Assembly (NCBI GenBank): GCA_946885905.1
Contig: CAMPHL010000051.1
Coordinates: forward strand, 1 to 9,776
Source: an uncultured Pseudomonadota bacterium
GTDB lineage: Bacteria > Pseudomonadota > Gammaproteobacteria > Burkholderiales > Usitatibacteraceae
Direction of reading: 5' to 3'
Length of the DNA: 9,776 bases
Shown here: in pieces, positions 97-9,776 of the stretch
Layout: every line of letters begins with the position of its first letter
How positions within the stretch are numbered: position 1 is the stretch's first letter
Position numbers and translations under genes: made by a program
Notes under the pieces: generated by a model
What the model was told of the DNA's origin: nothing
Databases searched by the model: none
What the model saw: only the letters and a program-made list of their open reading frames with translations

Positions 97-1074
97 TCAG
101 TTGTCGATCTTGATTTTCGCGTCGCGCACCACCTTGCCCCAGCGCTCGATCTCGGCGCGCTGGAACCGGGCGAACTCCGCGGGCGGCATGGCAGGAGCGG
201 TCGCGCCCTGCGAGTCCCACAGCTTCTTGATGTCGGGCATCGCCAGGATCTTCACCACCTCGGCATAGAGCTTGTCGACGACCGGCTTGGGCGTGCCCTT
301 CGGCACCCACATCGCGTACCAGCTCGTGACATCGAAGTCCTGGATGCCCAGCTCCTGCAGGGTCGGCGTGTCCGGCAGCATCGGGTTGCGCGTGCCGCTC
401 GAGACGGCGAGCGGCTTCAACTTGCCCGCCTTGATCTGGTTGGCCGAAGTGCCCATGCCGTCGAAGGCCATGTCCACGTTGCCGGCCAGCAGGTCCTGCA
501 TCATCGGCCCCGCGCCCTTGTACGGCACGTGCACGATGTCGGTGCCGGTGCGCATCTTGTAGAGCTCGCCGATCAGGTGGTGCGAGGTGCCGTTGCCGGC
601 GGAGCCGAAATTGAGCTTGCCCGGGTTGGCCTTCAGGTACTTGAGCAGGTCGTCGTACTTGTTGATGCCCGCATGCTTCGGGTGGACCACGATCACGTTG
701 GGTACCGCGGCCACGATGGTGACCGGCTCGAAGTCCTTCTCGATCCCGTAAGTGAGCTTGGTGTAGAGCGACTCGGCGATCGCGTGGTGGATCGCGCCCA
801 TGAAGATGGTGTAGCCGTCGCCAGGCTGGCGCGCGGCCGCGGCCGCGCCCACGGTGCCGCCGGCCCCGCCCATGTTCTCGACGTAGAAGCTCTGCCCGAA
901 GGCCTGCGTGAGCTTGGCCGCGATGGGACGCGCGAACGTGTCCACGCCGCCGCCGGCCGGGAAGGGGTTGATGACGCGGATGGACTTGTTGGGCCAGTCC
1001 TGGGCCTGCACGCCCAGGGCTGCTGCCGCGAATGCGACGGCCGTGATCGCGCGCGCGACCAGTCTGCTACGCAT
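97..1074 (-). CDS. Bug/TctC-family periplasmic solute-binding protein (orphan TTT-type receptor)
   Basis: This is a 325-residue periplasmic receptor, the usual length for the Bug (TctC-like) family of tripartite tricarboxylate transporter binding proteins, which capture small carboxylates and related ligands. Residues 1-24 form a signal peptide (basic MRSRLVAR, alanine-rich core, cleavage near VQA|QD). Family landmarks are PFPAGGGVD at 37-45, with Asp45 in the ligand loop; a GGAGGTVGA loop at 69-77; GSAGNGTSHH at 157-166; and VPYKGAGP at 183-190. The ATG start is backed by AGGAGG eight bases upstream (1083-1088). It lies 81 bases downstream of the TRAP large permease gene on the same strand and is probably cotranscribed with it. 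No TctA/TctB membrane genes are nearby, which is common for Bug proteins in Betaproteobacteria. It might work with membrane components encoded elsewhere or act as a sensor. The ligand cannot be read from the sequence; the neighbours suggest a malonate-like carboxylate. Confidence 0.93.
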   Translation of the reverse strand: MRSRLVARAITAVAFAAAALGVQAQDWPNKSIRVINPFPAGGGVDTFARPIAAKLTQAFGQSFYVENMGGAGGTVGAAAAARQPGDGYTIFMGAIHHAIAESLYTKLTYGIEKDFEPVTIVAAVPNVIVVHPKHAGINKYDDLLKYLKANPGKLNFGSAGNGTSHHLIGELYKMRTGTDIVHVPYKGAGPMMQDLLAGNVDMAFDGMGTSANQIKAGKLKPLAVSSGTRNPMLPDTPTLQELGIQDFDVTSWYAMWVPKGTPKPVVDKLYAEVVKILAMPDIKKLWDSQGATAPAMPPAEFARFQRAEIERWGKVVRDAKIKIDN

Positions 1075-1155: not shown

Positions 1156-2484
1156 TTATCCGGGTCCCATGAGCTTGTCCGGGAGCCAGGTCGCGATTCC
1201 CGGGAAGAAGCTCATGAGCACCATGAAGGCCAGCATGAGGAAGACGAACGGCATCGAGCCGCGCAGGATCGTGGGCAGCGAGACCTGCGGCGCCACGCCG
1301 CGCAGCACGTAGAGGTTCAGGCCCACCGGCGGGGTGATGAGCCCCACCTCCATGTTGATGGTGAGCAGGACCGCGAACCAGATGAGGTCGAAGTTGTTGG
1401 CCTCGAGCACCGGCGTGAGGATCGGCATCAGCATCAGGATGATGGCCACCGGCGGCAGGAAGCATCCGAGGATCAGCATGAAGAGGTTGATGAAGAACAT
1501 CAGCACCCAGCGGTTCAGGTTCAGGCCCACCAGCCACTCCGCCGCCGTCTGCGAGACGTAGAGCAGCGACATCATGTAGGAGAAGAGCGCCGCGGCCGCG
1601 ATGATCATGAGGATCATGCTCGACTCGCGCACCGTGTCGCGGAAGACCAGCCATTGGTCCCGCGGCCGCCAGGCGCGGTAGATCAGGATCACGAGGACCA
1701 GCGCCAGGAACGCGCCGATGGCGGCGATCTCGGAGGGGGTGGCGAGCCCGCCATACATGAAGTAGGCGATCGCCGAGATGAGCACCAGGAAGGGAACCAC
1801 GCGCAGCAGGCCCTCGCTCTTCTGCCGCAGCGTGAAGCGCTCATCCACCGCTTCGCCGCCGCCCGCGAGCAGGGCGCGGTTGGACAGGATGGTCGCCGCC
1901 CAGGCATAAGCCGCGAACAGCAGCACCAGCAGCGCGCCGGGGACGACCCCGGCGAGGAAGAGCCGCCCGATCGAGGTTTCGGTGGCGATCCCGTAGAGGA
2001 TCATCGTGATCGAGGGCGGGATGAGGATGCCGAGCGTGCCGCCCGCGCAGATGGCGCCGGTGGCGAGCGAGGGCGGGACGCCGCGCCGGATCATCTCGGG
2101 CACGCCCGCCTTGCCGATCGCGGCCGCGGTCGCTGGCGAGGAACCGCACACCGCCGAGAACATTCCGCAGGCGAGGATGTTGGCGATGACGAGGCCCCCG
2201 GGCAGGCGCGCGAGCCACCGGTACATGGACTCGTAGATGTCCTTGCCCGCGGCGGTCACGCCGATGGAGGCGCCCAAGAGCACGAAAAGCGGGATGGTGA
2301 GCAACGCGAACGAGTTCAGCTCGTCCATGAACTGCGTGGCGATGATCTGCAGGCTCGAAGGCCCCTTGAAGGCCACCAGGAAGACCACCGAGACCAGCGT
2401 GAGACCCCACGCGATCGGGAAGCCCGAGAAGAGTACCGCCGTGGTCACGACCACGATCAGAAGGCCGATCTGGATCTCGTTCAC
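1156..2484 (-). CDS. dctM: TRAP transporter large permease (DctM family)
   Basis: This is a 442-residue inner-membrane protein, the normal DctM length. It forms the translocation channel of the TRAP transporter and couples substrate uptake to an ion (usually sodium) gradient. It is hydrophobic throughout, with about a dozen predicted membrane segments. DctM signatures include LLTIPLFVLLGA at 61-72, the GSSPATAAAIGKAG region at 114-127, GILIPPSITMILYG at 152-165, and the matching second-half hairpin NMEVGLITPPVGLNLY at 377-392. The start is a GTG at 2484-2482 that begins one base after the dctQ stop codon (TGA-C-GTG), and no strong Shine-Dalgarno site is visible. Translation is therefore probably coupled to dctQ. 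Together with dctQ and dctP it makes a complete tripartite system. The sequence shows no damage. Confidence 0.96.
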   Translation of the reverse strand: MNEIQIGLLIVVVTTAVLFSGFPIAWGLTLVSVVFLVAFKGPSSLQIIATQFMDELNSFALLTIPLFVLLGASIGVTAAGKDIYESMYRWLARLPGGLVIANILACGMFSAVCGSSPATAAAIGKAGVPEMIRRGVPPSLATGAICAGGTLGILIPPSITMILYGIATETSIGRLFLAGVVPGALLVLLFAAYAWAATILSNRALLAGGGEAVDERFTLRQKSEGLLRVVPFLVLISAIAYFMYGGLATPSEIAAIGAFLALVLVILIYRAWRPRDQWLVFRDTVRESSMILMIIAAAALFSYMMSLLYVSQTAAEWLVGLNLNRWVLMFFINLFMLILGCFLPPVAIILMLMPILTPVLEANNFDLIWFAVLLTINMEVGLITPPVGLNLYVLRGVAPQVSLPTILRGSMPFVFLMLAFMVLMSFFPGIATWLPDKLMGPG

Positions 2485-2485
2485 G

Positions 2486-3010
2486 TCAGGCGCCCTGTCC
2501 GGAAACGGCGCCGCTTTCCGCGGCGGGCTTTTCCCGCAGCATCTCCGCGACGTACTGCAGCGCGGTCAGCCCGAGTCCGAGCGGCATCAAGGCGAAGAAC
2601 GGCCACCGGGGCGGGTCCCACGAGGACCCGCTGGTCTCGCCGCTGCGCATGGCGTGCAGCGTGAGCTCGAGCCCCTCCCAGGCGAGATAGATGCACACGG
2701 CAGTGCCCAGCACCGCGAGGACGCGTTCGAGCACCACCCGGTGCCGCGCCGGCAGGACATGGGCCAGGAGGTCTACGCCGATATGCCCCTTCGTCTTGAG
2801 GCAATAGGGCGATCCGACCAGCACGCAGCCGACGATCAGGTAGGTGGCTAGCTCGATCTCCCAGTAGGTCGAGTGCCCCGTCGCGCGCCACACCACCATG
2901 TAGCAGACGATCAGCATCGCGGCCGCCAGGCATACGGCGGCCACCACCGCGAGCGCGGTGGACAGTCCGTCGACCGCGCGCACGAAGCGCGCGGCCCGGG
3001 ACGGCGTCAT
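2486..3010 (-). CDS. dctQ: TRAP transporter small permease (DctQ family)
   Basis: This is a 174-residue four-helix membrane protein, typical of DctQ, which binds the large permease and is needed for transport. Hydrophobic segments lie near residues 15-37, 50-68, 90-110 and 134-155. The family-typical stretch YLIVGCVLVGSPYCLKTKGH, followed by IGVDLL, marks the second helix and its loop. The ATG at 3010-3008 overlaps the dctP stop codon by four bases (ATGA), so the two are translationally coupled; dctM starts one base after its own stop. DctQ proteins diverge quickly, so the call rests on hydropathy, size and position between dctP and dctM as much as on motifs. Confidence 0.93.
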   Translation of the reverse strand: MTPSRAARFVRAVDGLSTALAVVAAVCLAAAMLIVCYMVVWRATGHSTYWEIELATYLIVGCVLVGSPYCLKTKGHIGVDLLAHVLPARHRVVLERVLAVLGTAVCIYLAWEGLELTLHAMRSGETSGSSWDPPRWPFFALMPLGLGLTALQYVAEMLREKPAAESGAVSGQGA

Positions 3011-4002
3011 TTGATGCTGGTGAGGGTTTCGAGCAGGTCTTTCGCCTCGGGCGACTTGGCGGCGAATTCAGGCCACGAGGTCTTCTTCGCGAGCGCGATC
3101 CAGGCGTCGAAGTCCTCCTTGCTGAGGGGGGCGGTCTGCGCGCCGGCCTTCTTGTAGGCCTCGATCATGCGGTCCACCGCCTCGCGCTGCGAGTTGGCGA
3201 ACCACTTGTCGGAAACATCGGCGGCTTCCTCGAAGATCTTCTTCTGCGCGGGCGTGAGCTTGTCCCATGCGGCCTTCGACATGACCAGCGGCTGCATGAG
3301 CCACCACAGCGTGTACTTGCCGCCCACGGTGGCGTACTTGGTCTGCTCGTAGATGCGCATGGAGACGAAGGTCTCGGCCGAGGTGAGCGTCGAGGTGAGC
3401 ACCCCGGACTGCAGCGACGGGTAGATCTCGGTCGACGGGATGTTGATGACCGAGGCGCCCGCGGCCTTGAGCATCGTCTCGAACGTGGGATCGGCCGCGC
3501 GCATCTTCTCGCCCTTCACGGTGTCGGGCCCGGCGATCATCTTCACCTTGGAAGCGAAGGCCCCCGGCGTCCACCACCAGGTGACGATGTGGATGTTGTG
3601 CTTGTGCGCGAGGTTCTGCAGCTTCTCGCGGAAGGCCGTGTTCTTGAGCTTCATCGCGTAGTCGAGGTCCGAGATCGTCCCCGGCATGATCGTGATGGAG
3701 AACTCCGGGATCTTGCCCGCCGCGTACGACATCGGGAACACGGCCATCTCCAGGGTTCCCGCCTGCAAGGCGTCCAGCTGCGCGACCGGCTTGATGTTGA
3801 GCGAGCTGCCCGGGTAGATGCGGAACTTGAGGCTCTTGTCGCGCTTCCCGACCTCCTCGACGAAGAGCCTCGTGGCCTTGTCCCGCCCGTCCGTGTTGGC
3901 CTTGAACTGGTGCGAGATCTTGATTTCCTGTGCGGTGGCGCAAAGGGCCACCGCCGTGCAGGCCGTGAATGCGGCCAGCGCGTTGCCGAAACGCGAAAAC
4001 AT
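3007..4002 (-). CDS. dctP: TRAP transporter periplasmic solute-binding protein (DctP family)
   Basis: This is a 331-residue periplasmic receptor that delivers substrate to DctQM. Residues 1-24 form a signal peptide (MFSRFGNALAAF..., cleavage near ATA|QE). The mature protein begins EIKISHQF, followed by the DctP-type pattern of an early beta strand, a FRIYPGSSL strand at 60-68, and AVFPMSYAAG at 87-96. GEKMRAADP at 164-172 contains Arg168, which aligns with the conserved arginine that salt-bridges the substrate carboxylate in this family; the ligand is therefore probably an organic acid. The start was placed at 4002 because AGGAGG stands five bases before it; an in-frame ATG at 4056 would put that ribosome site inside the coding region and spoil the signal peptide. 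The gene begins 66 bases after the aminotransferase stop codon and overlaps dctQ by four bases. MatB on the opposite flank makes malonate a reasonable candidate ligand, unproven here. Confidence 0.94.
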   Translation of the reverse strand: MFSRFGNALAAFTACTAVALCATAQEIKISHQFKANTDGRDKATRLFVEEVGKRDKSLKFRIYPGSSLNIKPVAQLDALQAGTLEMAVFPMSYAAGKIPEFSITIMPGTISDLDYAMKLKNTAFREKLQNLAHKHNIHIVTWWWTPGAFASKVKMIAGPDTVKGEKMRAADPTFETMLKAAGASVINIPSTEIYPSLQSGVLTSTLTSAETFVSMRIYEQTKYATVGGKYTLWWLMQPLVMSKAAWDKLTPAQKKIFEEAADVSDKWFANSQREAVDRMIEAYKKAGAQTAPLSKEDFDAWIALAKKTSWPEFAAKSPEAKDLLETLTSIK

Positions 4003-4007
4003 GTATT

Positions 4008-4013
4008 CCTCCT
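4008..4013 (-). promoter_or_regulatory. Ribosome binding site that fixes the dctP start
   Basis: A perfect AGGAGG lies five bases before the ATG at 4002-4000, and the hydrophobic signal peptide follows directly. This decides between the two in-frame ATG codons, 4056 and 4002, in favour of the second. Confidence 0.85.
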
Positions 4014-4068
4014 CGTAGTTAGGTCTCGGACGACCGTCTGTGCGGCCGTTCGACATTGCTCCCCGGCT

Positions 4069-5262
4069 TCAGGCCGCCTGGCGGACCCCCCCGGCCTTCC
4101 CCGCCTGTGCGGCGAGGTACTCCATTGCCGCGGCCACGCCGCCCTTCTTGTGCGGCACGCCCGCCACCTGCAATCCCATCTCTACTCCCGCAAGGGTACC
4201 TGCCAACGCGAGGTCGTTGAAGTCCCCGAGATGACCGATGCGGAAAACCTTACCTTTGAGCTTGGTAAGCCCCATGCCGAGCGACATGTCGAAGTGCTCG
4301 AGCACGGCGGCGCGCAGCTTGTCCGCGTCGTGGCCCGGCGGCATGACGATCGCGGTGAGCGAAGAGCTGTACTCCTCCGGGTCGGCGGCCAGGACCTCGA
4401 GTCCCCACGCACGCACGGCCCGGCGAGTGGCCTCGGCATGGCGGTCGTGGCGGGCGAAGACGTTCTCGAGGCCTTCCTCCTCGAGCATCGCGATCGCTTC
4501 GCGCAAGCCGTAGAGGAGGTTGGTGGACGGCGTGTAGGGGAACCAGCCGTCGGCATTCGCCGGGATCATCTCCGACCAGTCCCAGAAGGAACGCGGCAGC
4601 TGCGCCGACTTGCCCGCCGCGAGCGCCTTGTCGGAGGTCGCGTTGAAGGACAGTCCCGGCGGCAGCATGAGGCCCTTCTGCGAGCCGCCAACCGTCACGT
4701 CCACGCCCCACTCGTCGTGGCGGTAGTCGATCGAGGCGAGGGAGGAGATCGTGTCGACCATGAGCAGCGCCGGATGCTTCGCGTTGTCGATCGCGCGGCG
4801 CACGAGCGGTATCCGCGTGGTCACGCCGGTCGAGGTCTCGTTGTGGACCACGCATACGGCCTTGATCGAGTGGCCCGTGTCGGCCTTCAGGCGCTTCTCG
4901 ATCTCGGGGTGGTCGGCCCCGTGGCGCCAGTCGCCCGGGATGATCTCGACCCTGAGCCCGAGCTTGGTGGCCATCTTCGACCACAGGGTCGCGAAATGGC
5001 CGGTTTCGGACATGAGGACGTGGTCGCCGGGCGAGAGCGTGTTGGCGAGGGCCGCTTCCCAGGCGCCCGTGCCAGAGGCGGGATAGATCACTACCGGGTG
5101 GCGCGTCCTGAAGATGCGCTTCATGCCCTCGAGGCAGGCCTTCGCGAGGACCTGGAATTCGGGGCCGCGATGGTCGATCGTGGGACGATCGATCGCGCGC
5201 AGGACGCGGTCCGGAACGTTGGTCGGGCCGGGGATCTGAAGAAAATGGCGGCCGGCTGGCAT
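4069..5262 (-). CDS. sgaA: Class V PLP-dependent aminotransferase, serine-glyoxylate aminotransferase type
   Basis: This is a 397-residue cytosolic aminotransferase closely resembling serine-glyoxylate aminotransferase (serine + glyoxylate to hydroxypyruvate + glycine), the serine-cycle enzyme of methylotrophs; the length matches. The N-terminal signature PGPTNVPDRV is at 11-20, DHRGPEF at 30-36, and the cofactor phosphate loop SGTGAWE at 63-69. Asp170 (in LLMVD) should contact the pyridine nitrogen, and Lys196 in GGSQKGLMLPPGLSF is the Schiff-base lysine. YGLREAIAMLEEEGLENV is at 251-268, and Arg341 in RIGHLGD should bind the substrate carboxylate. The start at 5262 has GAGGAG seven bases upstream. 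It is the first minus-strand gene, facing the FAD/Fe-S dehydrogenase, and lies 66 bases before dctP. Related alternatives are alanine-glyoxylate or aspartate-glyoxylate (BhcA-type) aminotransferase; no other beta-hydroxyaspartate cycle gene is in the window. The fold is sure; the amino donor is inferred. Confidence 0.92.
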   Translation of the reverse strand: MPAGRHFLQIPGPTNVPDRVLRAIDRPTIDHRGPEFQVLAKACLEGMKRIFRTRHPVVIYPASGTGAWEAALANTLSPGDHVLMSETGHFATLWSKMATKLGLRVEIIPGDWRHGADHPEIEKRLKADTGHSIKAVCVVHNETSTGVTTRIPLVRRAIDNAKHPALLMVDTISSLASIDYRHDEWGVDVTVGGSQKGLMLPPGLSFNATSDKALAAGKSAQLPRSFWDWSEMIPANADGWFPYTPSTNLLYGLREAIAMLEEEGLENVFARHDRHAEATRRAVRAWGLEVLAADPEEYSSSLTAIVMPPGHDADKLRAAVLEHFDMSLGMGLTKLKGKVFRIGHLGDFNDLALAGTLAGVEMGLQVAGVPHKKGGVAAAMEYLAAQAGKAGGVRQAA

Positions 5263-5345
5263 GGCGATGCTCCTCGTGAACGGCGAATACGGCCATAATG
5301 CCGCAGCCCTGCTCGGATGTGTCGCACGACCCGGTACAAACCCCA
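5263..5345. promoter_or_regulatory. Divergent intergenic control region
   Basis: These 83 bases separate the aminotransferase (leftward) from the FAD/Fe-S dehydrogenase (rightward) and must hold the promoters of both units, unless one is read from farther away. On the plus strand CATAAT at 5294-5299 resembles a -10 box (5 of 6) but has no convincing -35 partner. On the minus strand the same spot reads as CATTAT before the complementary C, a poorer -10, with GCGACA about 19 bases upstream as a weak -35. No clear operator palindrome was seen. A shared activator or an alternative sigma factor is possible. The minus-strand ribosome site GAGGAG lies at 5270-5275. Confidence 0.45.
5270..5275 (-). 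promoter_or_regulatory. Ribosome binding site that fixes the aminotransferase start
   Basis: GAGGAG lies seven bases before the ATG at 5262-5260, and the conserved aminotransferase N-terminus follows at once. The in-frame opening farther upstream, to 5523, encodes only arginine-rich sequence unlike the family. Confidence 0.75.
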
Positions 5346-8231
5346 ATGACCTCGCAACTCTCGAGCCCGGTGCGCTTCGCGCGCGGCGGCGAAGGCAGCC
5401 GCTTGGCCCGCAGGCTCGCGCGCGAAGTCGACGGCGAGGTCCTCTTCGACGCCGCGAGCCGCGGGCGCTATTCGACCGATGCGTCGATCTACCAGGTGAC
5501 GCCGGTCGGCGTCGTGGTGCCACGCAACGTCGAGGCCGCGATCGTCGCGATGCAGCTCGCGATCGAAGAGGGAGTGGCGGTCCTGCCGCGCGGCGCGGGC
5601 ACGTCCCAATGCGGACAGACGGTGGGCGAGGCGCTCATCGTCGACGACAGCCGGTTCCTCAACCGGGTGCACGCGGTGGATGCCGCCGCGCAACGCGCGG
5701 TGGTCGAGCCCGGCGTGGTGCTCGACACGTTGAACGCGCAGTTGAAGCCCCTCGGGCTCTGGTATCCGGTCGACGTGTCCACCTCGGCGCAGGCGACGCT
5801 GGGCGGAATGGCGGGCAACAACTCGTGCGGCTCGCGCTCGCTCGCCTACGGCAACATGGTCGATCGCGTCGAGGGGATCGACGCGTGGTTGCCGGATGGG
5901 ACGCGCGGGCGTTTCGGCATCGAAGGCGCGATGGACAACCCGCGCATCCGCAGCCTTGCGGCCCGCGCGAAGGCGCTCTGGGAGCGCGAGCGCGACGAGA
6001 TCATCGCGCGCACGCCCAGGACCGCGCGCAACGTCGCGGGCTACAACCTCTCGCGGCTGGCGCCCGAAGGCTTCAATCTCGCGAAGCTCTTGGTGGGCAG
6101 CGAGGGCACGCTCGCGTGGTTCGAGCGCATCCACCTGCGCCTCGCCGAGCTGCCGAGGCACAAGGCGCTCGGCGTGGCGCATTTCCCCCGCTTCTACGAC
6201 GCGATGGATTGCGCCCAGCACATCGTGAAGCTGGGGCCCTGCGCCGTGGAGCTGGTGGACCGCACGATGCTCGACCTCGCGCTCTCGAACCCGGCCTTCG
6301 CGCCGACCGTGCGCGAGTTCGTGACGGGCGAGCCCGATGCGATCCTGCTGGTGGAGTTCGCGGGCGAAGACGCCGGTGGCCAGGAGAAAGGCGCCAGGCA
6401 GCTCGCACAGCTCATGGGCGATCTCGGCTTTCCCGATTCCGTGGTGGTCGTGCCGCCGGCGCGGCAGGCGGCGCTGTGGAACGTCCGCAAGGCGGGCCTG
6501 AACATCATGATGTCGATGAAGGGCGACGGGAAGCCCGTGTCCTTCATCGAGGACTGCGCGGTGCCGCTGGAGCACCTGGCCGAGTACACATCGCAGCTCA
6601 CGGAGGTCTTCCGCAAGCACGGCACCGAAGGCACGTGGTATGCGCACGCATCCGTCGGGTGCCTGCACGTAAGGCCCGTGCTCAACATGAAGGGCGACGG
6701 CGCGATGCGCATGCGCGCGATCGCGGAGGAGGCGGCCGAGCTCGTGCGCCGCTACAAGGGCGCGTATTCGGGCGAGCATGGCGACGGCCTCGTACGCTCG
6801 GAGTGGATCGCGCCCTTCTTCGGTCCCCGCCTCACGGCCGCGCTCGCCGAGATCAAGTCGTGGTTCGATCCCGATGGCGTCATGAACCCCGGCAAGATCG
6901 TGAACCCCCCGAGGCAGGACGATCGCTCGCTGTTTCGTTATCCGCCCGGCTATGGCCCCAGGGCCCGGCCGGCGGCGCTCGACTGGAGCGAGTGGGGCGG
7001 CTTCGCGGGCGCGGTCGAGATGTGCAACAACAACGGGCACTGCCGCAAGTTCGACGCCGGCACGATGTGCCCGAGCTACCGCGCCACCGGCAACGAACGC
7101 GACCTCACGCGTGGGCGGGCCAACACGCTGCGCCTTGCGCTCTCCGGCCAGATCGAGGGCGAGGACTACGCGGGCCCGGCCGTGCGCGAGGCGCTCGAGC
7201 TTTGCGTCTCCTGCAAGGGCTGCCGGCGCGAATGCCCCACGGGCGTGGACATGGCGCGCATGAAGGTCGAGGTGACCGCGGAGCACAAGCGGCGCGAGGG
7301 CTTCACGTTGCGCGACCGGCTGGTCGGGATGCTTCCGGGCTACGCGCCGTGGGCGGCACGCCTCCAGCCGCTCACCGACCTCGCGACGAAGATGGGCGGC
7401 GGCGCGCTGCTGGAATTTCTCGCGGGCTTCGATCGCCGCCGGCCGTTGCCGCGATTTCGCGGCCCGTGGCGCGCAAGGCCATCGCGGCCCGATGGCCGTC
7501 CGGTCGTGCTCTTCGCCGACACGTTCAACACCTGGTTCGAGCCCGAGAACCTCGAGGCCGCGCAAAGGGTGCTCGAGGCGACGGGCCACGAGGTTCGATC
7601 CGCGACGGGCCCGGCCGGCGCGCGGCTGTGCTGCGGCCGCACCTACCTCACGAGCGGGATGGTCGAAGCTGCACGGGCCGAGGCGAAGAAGACGCTGGAT
7701 GCGCTCGCACCGCACCTCGACGCCGGCACGCCGATCGTGGGCCTCGAACCCTCGTGCGTGTTCACCTTCCGCGACGAGTACCCGGCGCTGCTGCCCGGCG
7801 ACGCGCGCGTGCAGCGCCTCGCCAGGGCCACGCTGGTCGATGGATACCTCGCCGCCGAGATCGCCGCGTCGCGCGTCGCTGCGCCCTGGAAAGCGAAACC
7901 GGGGCCGGATCCGAAGGCCGCGGTGCTGGTCCATGGCCATTGCCACCAGAAAGCGTTCGGGACGTTCGAGGCCACCGTGGCGCTCCTGCGCACGCTGCCG
8001 GGCGCGAAGGTCGAGCCGATCGAATCGTCGTGCTGCGGCATGGCGGGCTCCTTCGGCCACGAGCATTACGATGTCTCCATGAAGATGGCCGAGATCGCCC
8101 TGCTGCCCGCCGTGCGCTCCGCCCCGCGGGCGGCGCTCGCGGCGGCAGGCACGAGTTGCCGGCAGCAGATCACCCACGGCACCGGCCGGCCCGCCGTGCA
8201 CCCCATCGTCCTGCTAGCGGAGTCCCTGTGA
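5346..8231 (+). CDS. FAD-linked 2-hydroxyacid dehydrogenase fused to Fe-S / cysteine-rich CCG domains (YdiJ/GlcDF-like)
   Basis: This is a 961-residue flavoprotein joining a GlcD/D-lactate-dehydrogenase-like half to a GlpC/GlcF-like iron-sulfur half. The family (about 1000 residues, including E. coli YdiJ) oxidises D-2-hydroxyacids such as D-lactate, D-2-hydroxyglutarate or glycolate and passes electrons to the respiratory chain. The FAD-binding domain (about 40-260) shows PRGAGTS at 81-87, GNNSCG at 157-162 and GSEGTLA at 251-257. The FAD-oxidase C-terminal domain (about 265-520) shows HVRP at 441-444, GEHGDG at 476-481 and DPDGVMNPGKI at 508-518. Iron-sulfur ligands are Cys560, 566 and 575, then CxxCxxCxxxCP at 620-631. 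Two CCG-type domains follow (CCG at 762-764 and 896-898, Cys804, HGHCHQKA at 863-870). The ATG at 5346 was chosen as nearest the domain start, but neither it nor an in-frame ATG at 5298 has a clear Shine-Dalgarno. The stop codon overlaps the next GTG start. The substrate is not determined; glycolate or a malonate-related hydroxyacid would fit the neighbours. Confidence 0.92.
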   Translation: MTSQLSSPVRFARGGEGSRLARRLAREVDGEVLFDAASRGRYSTDASIYQVTPVGVVVPRNVEAAIVAMQLAIEEGVAVLPRGAGTSQCGQTVGEALIVDDSRFLNRVHAVDAAAQRAVVEPGVVLDTLNAQLKPLGLWYPVDVSTSAQATLGGMAGNNSCGSRSLAYGNMVDRVEGIDAWLPDGTRGRFGIEGAMDNPRIRSLAARAKALWERERDEIIARTPRTARNVAGYNLSRLAPEGFNLAKLLVGSEGTLAWFERIHLRLAELPRHKALGVAHFPRFYDAMDCAQHIVKLGPCAVELVDRTMLDLALSNPAFAPTVREFVTGEPDAILLVEFAGEDAGGQEKGARQLAQLMGDLGFPDSVVVVPPARQAALWNVRKAGLNIMMSMKGDGKPVSFIEDCAVPLEHLAEYTSQLTEVFRKHGTEGTWYAHASVGCLHVRPVLNMKGDGAMRMRAIAEEAAELVRRYKGAYSGEHGDGLVRSEWIAPFFGPRLTAALAEIKSWFDPDGVMNPGKIVNPPRQDDRSLFRYPPGYGPRARPAALDWSEWGGFAGAVEMCNNNGHCRKFDAGTMCPSYRATGNERDLTRGRANTLRLALSGQIEGEDYAGPAVREALELCVSCKGCRRECPTGVDMARMKVEVTAEHKRREGFTLRDRLVGMLPGYAPWAARLQPLTDLATKMGGGALLEFLAGFDRRRPLPRFRGPWRARPSRPDGRPVVLFADTFNTWFEPENLEAAQRVLEATGHEVRSATGPAGARLCCGRTYLTSGMVEAARAEAKKTLDALAPHLDAGTPIVGLEPSCVFTFRDEYPALLPGDARVQRLARATLVDGYLAAEIAASRVAAPWKAKPGPDPKAAVLVHGHCHQKAFGTFEATVALLRTLPGAKVEPIESSCCGMAGSFGHEHYDVSMKMAEIALLPAVRSAPRAALAAAGTSCRQQITHGTGRPAVHPIVLLAESL
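8219..8222 (+). promoter_or_regulatory. Ribosome binding site of the fused carboxyltransferase gene
   Basis: GGAG lies five bases before the GTG at 8228-8230, inside the last codons of the dehydrogenase gene. It supports a GTG start that overlaps the upstream stop codon by four bases (GTGA) and hence coupled translation. Confidence 0.65.
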
Positions 8232-9469
8232 GCAACCCCGCCGCGCTCCTGGAAGCGCTCAAGAAGGCCGTCGCGTTCGAGCCCCACAAGGATCGCGTCG
8301 GCAACCTTTCCTGGGGCAAGGGCACGCTCGACGCAAAGCCCGTTCGCCTGGCGCTGGTCGAGAACCGCTTCGCGAGCGGCGCGATCGGCGCGGCCGAAGC
8401 CGAGCGGTTGGGCGCGCTCTTCAAGATCGCCGCGCGCGAAAAGGCGCCGATGATCCTGCACCTGGATTCTGCGGGCGCGAAGATCTCCGAGGGATTGAAG
8501 GCGCTGGGCGCATTCCGCGCCGTCTACCGCGCCGGCCTCGAGGCGGTCGAAAGCGGCGCGCACATGGCCGCGGTCCTGGGCGCCAACTGCTTCGGCGGCT
8601 CGAGCATGCTGGCGCACCTCGCGCCACGCCGGCTCTTCAGCCCGCAGACCAAGCTCGCGATGTCCGGGCCCGCGATCCTCGCGGCCGCCGCGGGTATGGA
8701 CGCGCTCGACGAGATGTTCCGTGCGATGGCGGATGCGGCGCTGATGGCAGGCGCCCGCGCCAAGGCCTCGCCGGCGAACGTCGTATGGGCTCCCGGAGTG
8801 GACGTGGGCGCCTGGCTGCGCGAGACCTTCGCCGATGCGACCGAGCCCCGGGCACGCCACGCCGCGCTCGCCGCGCGCATCGCCAAGGAGCCCGCGATGG
8901 TGCCCGAGGAGGTGCGACGCAAGGACCTGGAGAGGATCTACGATGGCGCCTACGAAGCCAAGGAAGCCAAGGGGCTGCTCTTCGGCCGCGGGAAGCGCGG
9001 GGACGCCGAGGAGGCGATCATCGGGCTGGTGGGCCGAAAGCCCGTGGGCGCGGCGCGCGCGTGGCGCTTCGCCGAGCTCGCGTGGAAGCTCGTGGACCAT
9101 CCGCCCGCGCGGGTGGAGGTCTACCTCGACTGCGCCTCGCACGCCCCCAGGCTGGAAGACGAGCGCATGGTGCTGTCCGAGTTCATCGCGGGGATGAGCC
9201 GTCCGCTCGCGGCGCTGCGCCTCAGGGGCTCGCACGTGGGGCTCACGATCCTCACGCAGGCGGGCGGCGGCGTCTACGTCGCCCTGGCCGGCCCCGCATC
9301 TCGCGTCACCAGCGTCCACGAGGCCGACATCCAGGTGCTGCCCGGTGCGGCCGTGGCCGCGATACTCGGGGGGGAGAACATCGACGCCACGCCGGGTTTC
9401 GACGCCTACCGCGAGGCGGGCGTGGCCGAAGAGGAGCTCAGGATCGGGCTGGTGAAGGGGCACTCGTGA
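8228..9469 (+). CDS. Fused MdcD/MdcE-like carboxyltransferase (biotin-independent malonate decarboxylase beta-gamma type)
   Basis: This 413-residue protein has two crotonase-like carboxyltransferase halves. The first (about 40-190) resembles the malonate decarboxylase beta subunit MdcD: ENRFASGAIGAAEAERLG at 45-62, LHLDSAGAKISEG at 77-89, the glycine-rich oxyanion-type segment GANCFGGSSM at 118-127, and LAMSGPAIL at 143-151. The second (about 250-400) resembles the gamma subunit MdcE: YLDCASHAPRLEDE at 299-312, GSHVGLTILTQAGGGVYVAL at 334-353, and LPGAAVAAILG at 371-381. Classical MdcD and MdcE are separate chains of roughly 290 and 240 residues that decarboxylate malonyl-ACP; here they are one shorter chain. 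The GTG start lies within the preceding stop (GTGA overlap), with GGAG five bases before it, and the stop overlaps the matB start in the same way. With MatB next door it may decarboxylate malonyl-CoA directly. The family resemblance is recalled from motifs, not from a search; another acyl-CoA carboxyltransferase role remains possible. Confidence 0.8.
   Translation: MSNPAALLEALKKAVAFEPHKDRVGNLSWGKGTLDAKPVRLALVENRFASGAIGAAEAERLGALFKIAAREKAPMILHLDSAGAKISEGLKALGAFRAVYRAGLEAVESGAHMAAVLGANCFGGSSMLAHLAPRRLFSPQTKLAMSGPAILAAAAGMDALDEMFRAMADAALMAGARAKASPANVVWAPGVDVGAWLRETFADATEPRARHAALAARIAKEPAMVPEEVRRKDLERIYDGAYEAKEAKGLLFGRGKRGDAEEAIIGLVGRKPVGAARAWRFAELAWKLVDHPPARVEVYLDCASHAPRLEDERMVLSEFIAGMSRPLAALRLRGSHVGLTILTQAGGGVYVALAGPASRVTSVHEADIQVLPGAAVAAILGGENIDATPGFDAYREAGVAEEELRIGLVKGHS
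9455..9460 (+). promoter_or_regulatory. Ribosome binding site of matB
   Basis: AAGGGG lies five bases before the GTG at 9466-9468, within the last codons of the carboxyltransferase gene. Together with the GTGA overlap it fixes the matB start. Confidence 0.65.
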
Positions 9470-9776
9470 ACGAGAACCTTTACGCGCTGTTCGAATCGCG
9501 CTTTCCGGCCGACAGGAGCCAGCCGCTGCTCATCCTGCCGGAGGGCGGCGGGATCACTTATGCGCAGGCCCACGAAGGCGCCGGCCGCTATGCGGCGCTG
9601 TTCGCCGGCCTCGGCCTCGCGCCGGGCGACCGGGTCGCGGTGCAGGTCGAGAAATCGACCGAGGCGCTGCTGCTCTACCTCGGCTGCCTGAGGGCCGGCC
9701 TCGCCTATCTGCCGCTCAACAGCGCCTACCAGCAGGGCGAAATCGGCTACTTCCTCGAAAATGCCGAGCCGCGCGC
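9466..9776 (+). CDS. matB: Malonyl-CoA synthetase MatB, N-terminal part (cut by window edge)
   Basis: Only the first 103 codons are present of what should be a protein of about 500 residues in the ANL (AMP-forming acyl-CoA synthetase) superfamily. MatB activates malonate with ATP and CoA to malonyl-CoA, AMP and pyrophosphate in the cytosol. The N-terminus NLYALFESRFPADRSQP (residues 3-19), ITYAQ near 30, GLAPGDRVAVQVEKSTEALL from about 50, and the segment CLRAGLAYLPLNSAYQ followed by EIGYFLENAEPR match the characteristic opening of bacterial MatB proteins; the QVEKS stretch and PLN-AY motif are especially typical. The GTG start overlaps the upstream stop by four bases and has AAGGGG before it. 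The adenylation motifs and catalytic lysine lie beyond the window, so completeness cannot be checked. A methylmalonyl- or other dicarboxyl-CoA ligase is the main alternative. Confidence 0.88.
   Translation, partial: MNENLYALFESRFPADRSQPLLILPEGGGITYAQAHEGAGRYAALFAGLGLAPGDRVAVQVEKSTEALLLYLGCLRAGLAYLPLNSAYQQGEIGYFLENAEPR

What the first reader, a model, noticed from the sequence alone, without database searches (positions are those of the whole stretch)
8228..9776. Compact MdcD-MdcE fusion coupled to MatB: a possible ACP-independent, biotin-free malonyl-CoA decarboxylase
Two malonate pathways are well known: MatB + MatA (free malonyl-CoA, decarboxylated by a GNAT-fold MatA), and the Mdc complex (MdcA/C/D/E, malonyl bound to an ACP with a special prosthetic group). 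This locus mixes them: a single 413-residue chain with MdcD-like and MdcE-like halves lies directly before matB, with overlapping start/stop codons, in the slot where matA would be. No MdcA, MdcC, MdcB or MdcG is seen in the window. The sequence shows the fusion, the motifs and the coupling; that it decarboxylates malonyl-CoA directly is inference. It would be a simplified hybrid route that, to my knowledge, is not well described.
Basis: partly seen in the sequence, partly recalled or inferred. Interest (0 to 1): 0.75.

Follow-up and report, generated by a model that had tools for sequence, protein, structure and literature searches.

The report
Single-chain malonate decarboxylase paired with MatB
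A bacterium carries a compact one-piece relative of a two-part malonate-decarboxylating enzyme, wired next to the gene that activates malonate; in some relatives the two are fused into one protein, which hints at a little-noticed third way for bacteria to use malonate.

Summary
Window 8228-9469 (+) encodes a 413-residue chain with MdcD-like and MdcE-like halves, overlapping by 4 bases the FAD/Fe-S gene before it and matB after it. It is a divergent single-chain MdcD-MdcE relative. Leaving out a distant group of 7, matB lies downstream in 51 of 52 relatives' loci readable past the gene; eight database proteins, two of them matching genomes read here, carry both as one chain. Of 399 genomes, all 44 with the gene have MatB; 33 lack MatA, and 32 of these lack MdcA over cut-off. 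This supports decarboxylation of free malonyl-CoA made by MatB, without ACP or biotin, as MdcD-MdcE does in vitro (PMC5534430). Against it here: matA directly follows matB in 8 of 10 loci of the window's type, though not in L002, highest in full-length identity; and MdcE Gln100 and Ser142 are not kept. Activity is inferred. New variant of a known kind; not found in print in the searches named.

The parts
8228..9469 (+). single-chain MdcD-MdcE-like protein, 413 aa (called FUS in this report)
8228..8881 (+). MdcD-like N-half (residues 1-218); A84 and G124 at the oxyanion-hole positions by alignment
8882..9466 (+). MdcE-like C-half (residues 219-413); H305 at the place of MdcE Gln100, conserved E312 and G347
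9466..9776 (+). matB (malonyl-CoA synthetase), first 103 codons, cut by the window end
   Evidence: PRK07514 positions 1-103, E 1.3e-32; full-length neighbours in L002 and L003 score 788 and 803 bits against a cut-off of 558
5346..8231 (+). FAD-binding and Fe-S oxidoreductase (D-2-hydroxyacid dehydrogenase type), overlaps FUS by 4 bases; in-frame alternative ATG at 5298
4069..5262 (-). class V aminotransferase; closest solved relative named serine-glyoxylate aminotransferase, closest NCBIfam model BhcA (below cut-off); start chosen by eye
3007..4056 (-). TRAP transporter binding protein DctP
2486..3010 (-). TRAP transporter small permease DctQ
1156..2484 (-). TRAP transporter large permease DctM
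97..1074 (-). TctC-type tricarboxylate-transport binding protein

Best explanation
FUS is a single-chain, divergent MdcD-MdcE-type decarboxylase that works with MatB. MatB makes malonyl-CoA from malonate, ATP and CoA (inferred from family). FUS binds the free CoA thioester in its MdcD-like half, stabilises the enolate in the oxyanion hole (A84 and G124 backbone, inferred from alignment), and expels CO2 with the help of the MdcE-like half (H305, or Gln in other members), giving acetyl-CoA. No MdcA, MdcC, special prosthetic group or biotin is needed. Shown: the fusion, its family, its coupling to matB, co-occurrence and gene fusions with MatB, and frequent absence of detectable MatA and MdcA. 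Inferred: the reaction, the substrate and the residue roles.
For: MatB is directly coupled: outside a distant group of 7 loci, 51 of 52 loci (48 genomes) readable past FUS have a MatB homologue (44-100% identical to that of L003) downstream on the same strand; 21 abut or overlap. Single-ORF FUS-MatB: L091 (941 aa) and L107 (952 aa); eight database proteins of 912-950 aa carry PF01039 and/or PF06833 plus PF00501 and PF13193, two of them matching these two genomes. All 44 FUS genomes of 399 have MatB (43 full-length; in G344 both genes are cut by contig ends); among 104 MatB genomes the counts are 10 FUS and MatA, 33 FUS only, 38 MatA only, 23 neither, Fisher p 1.2e-4, not corrected for kinship. 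Of the 33 FUS-only genomes, 32 have no MdcA over cut-off, G007 has a broken one. L061 has TRAP dctPQM-FUS-matB in a row, though its genome G056 also has MatA elsewhere. C-halves: 40 of 41 hit malonate_gamma, 4 hit AccA_sub. Residue 305 is H in 35 and Q in 17 of 52, MdcE having Gln100 there. Purified MdcD-MdcE decarboxylates malonyl-CoA, kcat 2.3 per s, K0.5 100 uM (PMC5534430, section read).
Against: matA sits directly after matB in 8 of 10 readable loci of the window's type and probably on the contigs of three further FUS homologues of 60-62% identity, by equal contig length, so FUS would be redundant there. MdcE Ser142, whose change to Ala costs about tenfold, is Gly in the window by alignment, and Gln100 is His. 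The Mdc family scores are far below cut-off. 23 of 104 MatB genomes have neither MatA nor FUS, so MatB does not always have such a partner. In six small genomes (and a contig-edge fragment in a seventh) FUS sits in another cluster and matB elsewhere. One further locus, L083, has FUS without matB.
Confidence: 0.55

Rival explanations
1. Same fold and chemistry, other substrate: FUS decarboxylates a substituted malonyl-CoA that MatB also makes (methylmalonyl-CoA to propionyl-CoA, or hydroxymalonyl-CoA to glycolyl-CoA), while MatA, where present, handles malonyl-CoA. In the window type, glycolyl-CoA would feed the glycolate-oxidase-like and serine-glyoxylate-aminotransferase-like neighbours.
For: Explains coexistence with MatA (8 of 10 window-type loci). 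Neighbours resemble D-lactate/glycolate oxidases and serine-glyoxylate aminotransferase and recur next to FUS in this clade. Catalytic positions differ from MdcE. MatB tolerance for substituted malonates is recalled, not tested here.
Against: Other clades have FUS-matB without those neighbours. FUS and MatA tend to exclude each other across MatB genomes. No sequence evidence for a larger pocket was looked for.
Confidence: 0.2
2. FUS is an accessory of MatB rather than a decarboxylase: a thioesterase or editing partner that removes excess malonyl-CoA, or a structural or regulatory subunit.
For: Tight pairing and fusion with MatB would fit a subunit as well as a next-step enzyme; MdcE Ser142 is not kept; MatA often follows.
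Against: The glycine at the oxyanion-hole position, G124, is invariant in 52 of 52 plus 6 of 6 in the distant group, E312 likewise; both halves of an active site are kept; 32 of 44 FUS genomes in the 399-genome sample show neither MatA nor MdcA over cut-off.
Confidence: 0.15
3. FUS is a carboxyltransferase subunit of a biotin-dependent acyl-CoA carboxylase or decarboxylase.
For: The whole-protein profile scores PccB-type chains slightly above MdcD in the PDB (61 against 51 bits, N-half region), the C-half profile alone is weak and slightly prefers AccA (22.5 bits) to MdcE (17.4 bits), and the fold is shared.
Against: NCBIfam models of the C-half favour MdcE (40 of 41 members against 4 of 41 for AccA_sub). 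No biotin-carrier motif in the 633 proteins called in 46 loci (a loose pattern). The loop residue is H or Q, as in MdcE (DVPSQ), not the Phe of PccB (DVPGF, printed; matched by motif). Relatives closer to Mdc score both Mdc models higher.
Confidence: 0.05
4. FUS is the decarboxylase of an ordinary Mdc complex whose other genes lie just beyond the window.
For: G257 carries an mdc-type gene cluster, but about 0.94 Mb from its FUS.
Against: No MdcA over cut-off in 43 of 46 genomes nor in 13 of 13 more; no mdcD/mdcE-type gene other than FUS beside FUS was seen in the loci read.
Confidence: 0.03

Closest known systems
MdcD-MdcE of the biotin-independent malonate decarboxylase (PDB 5VIP, 5VIT, 5VJ1)
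   Same: The halves are best recognised by the malonate_beta and malonate_gamma models; fold of each half; oxyanion-hole Gly; Gln/His at the Gln100 place; the known pair also decarboxylates free malonyl-CoA in vitro (PMC5534430).
   Different: One chain of about 413 residues instead of two; scores far below the equivalog cut-offs; Ser142 not kept; no MdcA, MdcB, MdcC or MdcG in the window; tied to MatB instead.
MatA (malonyl-CoA decarboxylase, PF05292) with MatB
   Same: Same partner MatB, same presumed reaction; a TRAP transporter also occurs beside some FUS-matB pairs.
   Different: No Pfam match in common (FUS hits PF01039/PF06833); MatA lies behind matB in 8 of 10 window-type loci and is absent from 33 of 44 FUS genomes in the 399-genome sample.
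MatB (malonyl-CoA synthetase, PRK07514)
   Same: The neighbour is a clear MatB: full-length copies from two relatives exceed the model's cut-off.
   Different: Here coupled or fused to a carboxyltransferase-fold protein.
Biotin-dependent carboxyltransferases and decarboxylases (PccB, MmdA, transcarboxylase 12S, AccA/AccD)
   Different: About 100 residues shorter than PccB-type chains; no biotin partner found; MdcE-type C-half by family models and loop residue.

Membership tests
Biotin-independent malonate decarboxylase (Mdc) | Subunit scores above the curated malonate_beta / malonate_gamma cut-offs | tested here: not met
   52.6 against 278 bits and 39.5 against 237 bits
Biotin-independent malonate decarboxylase (Mdc) | MdcD and MdcE as the best-matching families of the two halves | tested here: met
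   PRK07189/malonate_beta best for the N-half, malonate_gamma the only NCBIfam hit of the window's C-half; against PDB sequences PccB and AccA chains score slightly higher than MdcD and MdcE
Biotin-independent malonate decarboxylase (Mdc) | MdcA transferase present in the genome | tested here: inconclusive
   the window's own genome is not held; in relatives no PF16957 match over cut-off in 43 of 46 and 13 of 13 genomes; full-length only in G257, broken in G007, marginal in G159
Biotin-independent malonate decarboxylase (Mdc) | MdcE residues Gln100 and Ser142 | tested here: not met
   by alignment His305 and Gly346/347 in the window; Gln at 305 in 17 of 52 members, Ser at 346 in 2 of 51
Biotin-independent malonate decarboxylase (Mdc) | Decarboxylation of a malonyl thioester | not testable with these tools
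   needs an enzyme assay
MatA-type malonyl-CoA decarboxylase | PF05292 match | tested here: not met
   FUS hits only PF01039 and PF06833 at E <= 1e-3
Biotin-dependent carboxyltransferase / decarboxylase | Biotin carrier or biotin carboxylase in the locus | tested here: not met
   none among the eight window genes scanned; no E[AVS]MK-type motif in 633 proteins called in 46 loci, a loose test; the genome at large was not searched
Biotin-dependent carboxyltransferase / decarboxylase | Carboxyltransferase fold | tested here: met
MatB (partner) | PRK07514 above cut-off | tested here: inconclusive
   the window copy is only 103 codons, best model PRK07514 but 113 of 558 bits; full-length neighbours in L002 and L003 score 788 and 803 bits

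The most novel reading that the evidence does not exclude
A third bacterial route for malonate: MatB plus a single-chain MdcD-MdcE-type decarboxylase acting on free malonyl-CoA. In 32 of 44 carrying genomes of a 399-genome sample it is the only candidate malonyl-CoA decarboxylase detected (no MatA, no MdcA over cut-off), and in some genomes it is fused into one bifunctional malonyl-CoA synthetase-decarboxylase that would turn malonate into acetyl-CoA on one polypeptide.
Probability: 0.5. Interest if true: 0.65.

Novelty: new variant of a known kind. Interest (0 to 1): 0.55.

Why it matters
Malonate use is usually read from matA or mdc genes. If this is right, genomes with matB but without matA or mdcA can be wrongly read as lacking a malonyl-CoA decarboxylase, many proteins now named hypothetical protein or malonate decarboxylase beta subunit get a function, and the natural FUS-MatB fusion gives a ready test object. 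It also suggests that the MdcD-MdcE core can work in cells without its special acyl carrier.

Tried and rejected
Window's own genome: none held. A single-sequence scan of genome contigs found no relative; the alignment scan gave 10 loci. Plasmids: no match. A second order draw repeated handles of the first and reached no closer genome. So the DNA after the window's matB stays unknown.

Contig-length matching between the FUS and MatA protein lists gave three same-source matches above 8 kb (14,792, 18,400 and 8,816 bases).

Considered and rejected: PccB-type biotin enzyme; ordinary Mdc complex; FUS as a frame artefact (conserved in hundreds of homologues). The tartronate/glycolate idea is kept as a rival only. 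The FUSED flags printed are 4-base overlaps except in L091 and L107. In one search the FUS set was compiled by hand: six of the 50 matches (G119, G178, G185, G276, G323, G369) were left out as partial MdcD/AccD-like; only G323 was fetched, and it holds a 423-aa chain closer to Mdc. Four of 61 loci were dropped from the residue alignment (L054, L110, L111, L130: broken or cut).

Full report
What is there. The window holds, left to right, a TctC binding protein, a DctMQP TRAP transporter and a class V aminotransferase on the minus strand, then on the plus strand a FAD/Fe-S oxidoreductase, the 413-residue protein in question (FUS) and the first 103 codons of matB. Start and stop codons overlap by four bases at both FUS borders.

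Active site. The paper on the Pseudomonas enzyme (PMC5534430; abstract and sections 4, 6, 12 and 13 read) places the oxyanion hole at MdcD Val121 and Gly162 and likely malonyl contacts at MdcE Gln100, Tyr102 and Ser142. By counting along the alignments, these correspond to FUS A84, G124, H305, P307 and G346/G347. G124 is invariant (52 of 52, plus 6 of 6 in the distant group). Residue 305 is His in 35 and Gln in 17 of 52, the window included. E312 is invariant. Position 346 is Gly 39, Ala 10, Ser 2; position 347 is Gly in all 51 that have a letter. PccB has Phe at the 305 place by motif (DVPGF printed, DVPSQ of MdcE). These assignments are inferences from alignment.

Link to MatB. FUS homologues were placed in 61 loci. 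Seven belong to a distant group in small genomes; two end inside FUS. Of the remaining 52 (48 genomes), 51 have a MatB homologue downstream on the same strand: 2 as a single ORF, 21 abutting or overlapping, 24 within 200 bases (L110 taken) and 4 further off (in L054 because the FUS frame is broken). One (L083, a second copy in G319) has none within the 3 kb held. L091 (941 aa) and L107 (952 aa) are FUS-MatB in one ORF, with MatB parts of 712 and 720 bits against a cut-off of 558. A region-restricted database search, which scores at most about 8,000 candidates, found eight such fusions of 912-950 residues; two of them match these two genomes by identity or contig length.

Co-occurrence. In 399 genomes of the order of G003 (record titled Burkholderiales), MatB was found in 104, MatA in 92 and FUS in 44 (six partial Mdc/Acc-like matches left out by hand). 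All 44 FUS genomes have MatB, counting G344, where both genes are cut by contig ends. Among the 104, 10 have FUS and MatA, 33 FUS only, 38 MatA only and 23 neither (Fisher p 1.2e-4, no correction for kinship). Of the 33 FUS-only genomes, 32 show no MdcA over cut-off and G007 a broken one. In an overlapping set of 46 genomes (44 with FUS), MatA is in 20, one of them a short partial match, and MdcA over cut-off in 3, only G257 with a full-length match. Completeness of the genomes was not given by the tool, so absences are soft.

The locus type of the window. The window's upstream gene and divergent aminotransferase recur in its clade, often with the TRAP genes. Of 12 loci with the FAD/Fe-S gene just before FUS, 10 can be read past matB: 8 have matA 6-50 bases behind matB, 2 (L002, L053) do not, and their genomes show no MatA at all. 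L005, L110 and L112, where the gene before FUS is not visible, also have matA behind matB. The tree puts the window in a 26-row clade with both L002 and L007, one without and one with matA. Three further homologues probably share a contig with matA.

How it most likely works. MatB charges malonate to malonyl-CoA; FUS decarboxylates it to acetyl-CoA on the free CoA ester. Purified MdcD-MdcE doing this in vitro is the strongest precedent. Where MatA is also present, FUS may serve another malonate analogue, another condition, or be redundant; this is open. Elsewhere, an M20-type hydrolase gene is near FUS-matB in 15 of the 46 loci, in 12 of them together with branched-chain-amino-acid-type ABC permeases; L061 has a TRAP transporter right before FUS, with MatA elsewhere in its genome. 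A TRAP transporter for malonate is reported in Sinorhizobium (title seen in the reference list of PMC5237526, of which I saw passages only).

Known or new. Full-text searches listed no paper that, by title and abstract start, describes a single-chain MdcD-MdcE with MatB; apart from PMC5534430 (sections) and PMC5237526 (passages) the listed papers were not opened, and the library lacks most subscription journals. Public annotations call some members malonate decarboxylase beta subunit. I rate it a new variant of a known kind.

Noticed in passing
L118, L124-L128 (small genomes G312, G253, G192, G026, G117, G283): A FUS homologue at 25-28% identity sits in a cluster with a Liv-type ABC transporter. 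In five of these six loci (all but the short L124) there is also another AMP-forming CoA ligase (25-27% to MatB), a flavodoxin and an HTH plus shikimate-kinase-domain regulator (domains tested in L118 only; BoxR-like is recalled). These genomes have a MatB elsewhere and no MatA.
   Followed up: partly
L148 5644-6915 (-): In G323 a 423-aa single-chain MdcD-MdcE, closer to Mdc and above the Pfam MdcE cut-off, lies divergently beside matB, with TRAP genes nearby.
   Followed up: partly
L091 9109-11934 (+) and L107 8923-11781 (+): FUS and MatB in one natural ORF of 941 and 952 residues; both genomes (G348, G125) also carry a separate FUS-matB pair (L065, L063).
   Followed up: yes
L057-L060, L063-L066, L120-L123 and others: An M20 (ArgE/DapE-type) hydrolase gene is near FUS-matB in 15 of 46 loci, in 12 with branched-chain-type ABC permeases; it could release malonate from N-malonyl compounds (speculation). 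In L151 the hydrolase precedes matB with no FUS between.
   Followed up: partly
L054 (G077): The FUS frame is broken by a stop in mid-gene in a genome that has a MatA elsewhere; the in-frame stops reported for G227 and G411 lie at the very end of the match.
   Followed up: partly
L080 (G257): One genome carries an mdc-type cluster (MdcA and MdcD over cut-off, MdcE just under; other mdc genes named by eye) as well as FUS-matB-matA, so three candidate malonate routes together.
   Followed up: partly
L136 8566-9417, and by eye L138, L141: Some matB genes of genomes without MatA or FUS have a single-domain enoyl-CoA hydratase-type gene next to them (PF00378 tested in L136 only), a possible further decarboxylase candidate.
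   Followed up: no
window 4069-8231: A divergent serine-glyoxylate-type aminotransferase and a glycolate-oxidase-like FAD/Fe-S gene beside a malonate module: a recurring but unexplained pairing.
   Followed up: partly
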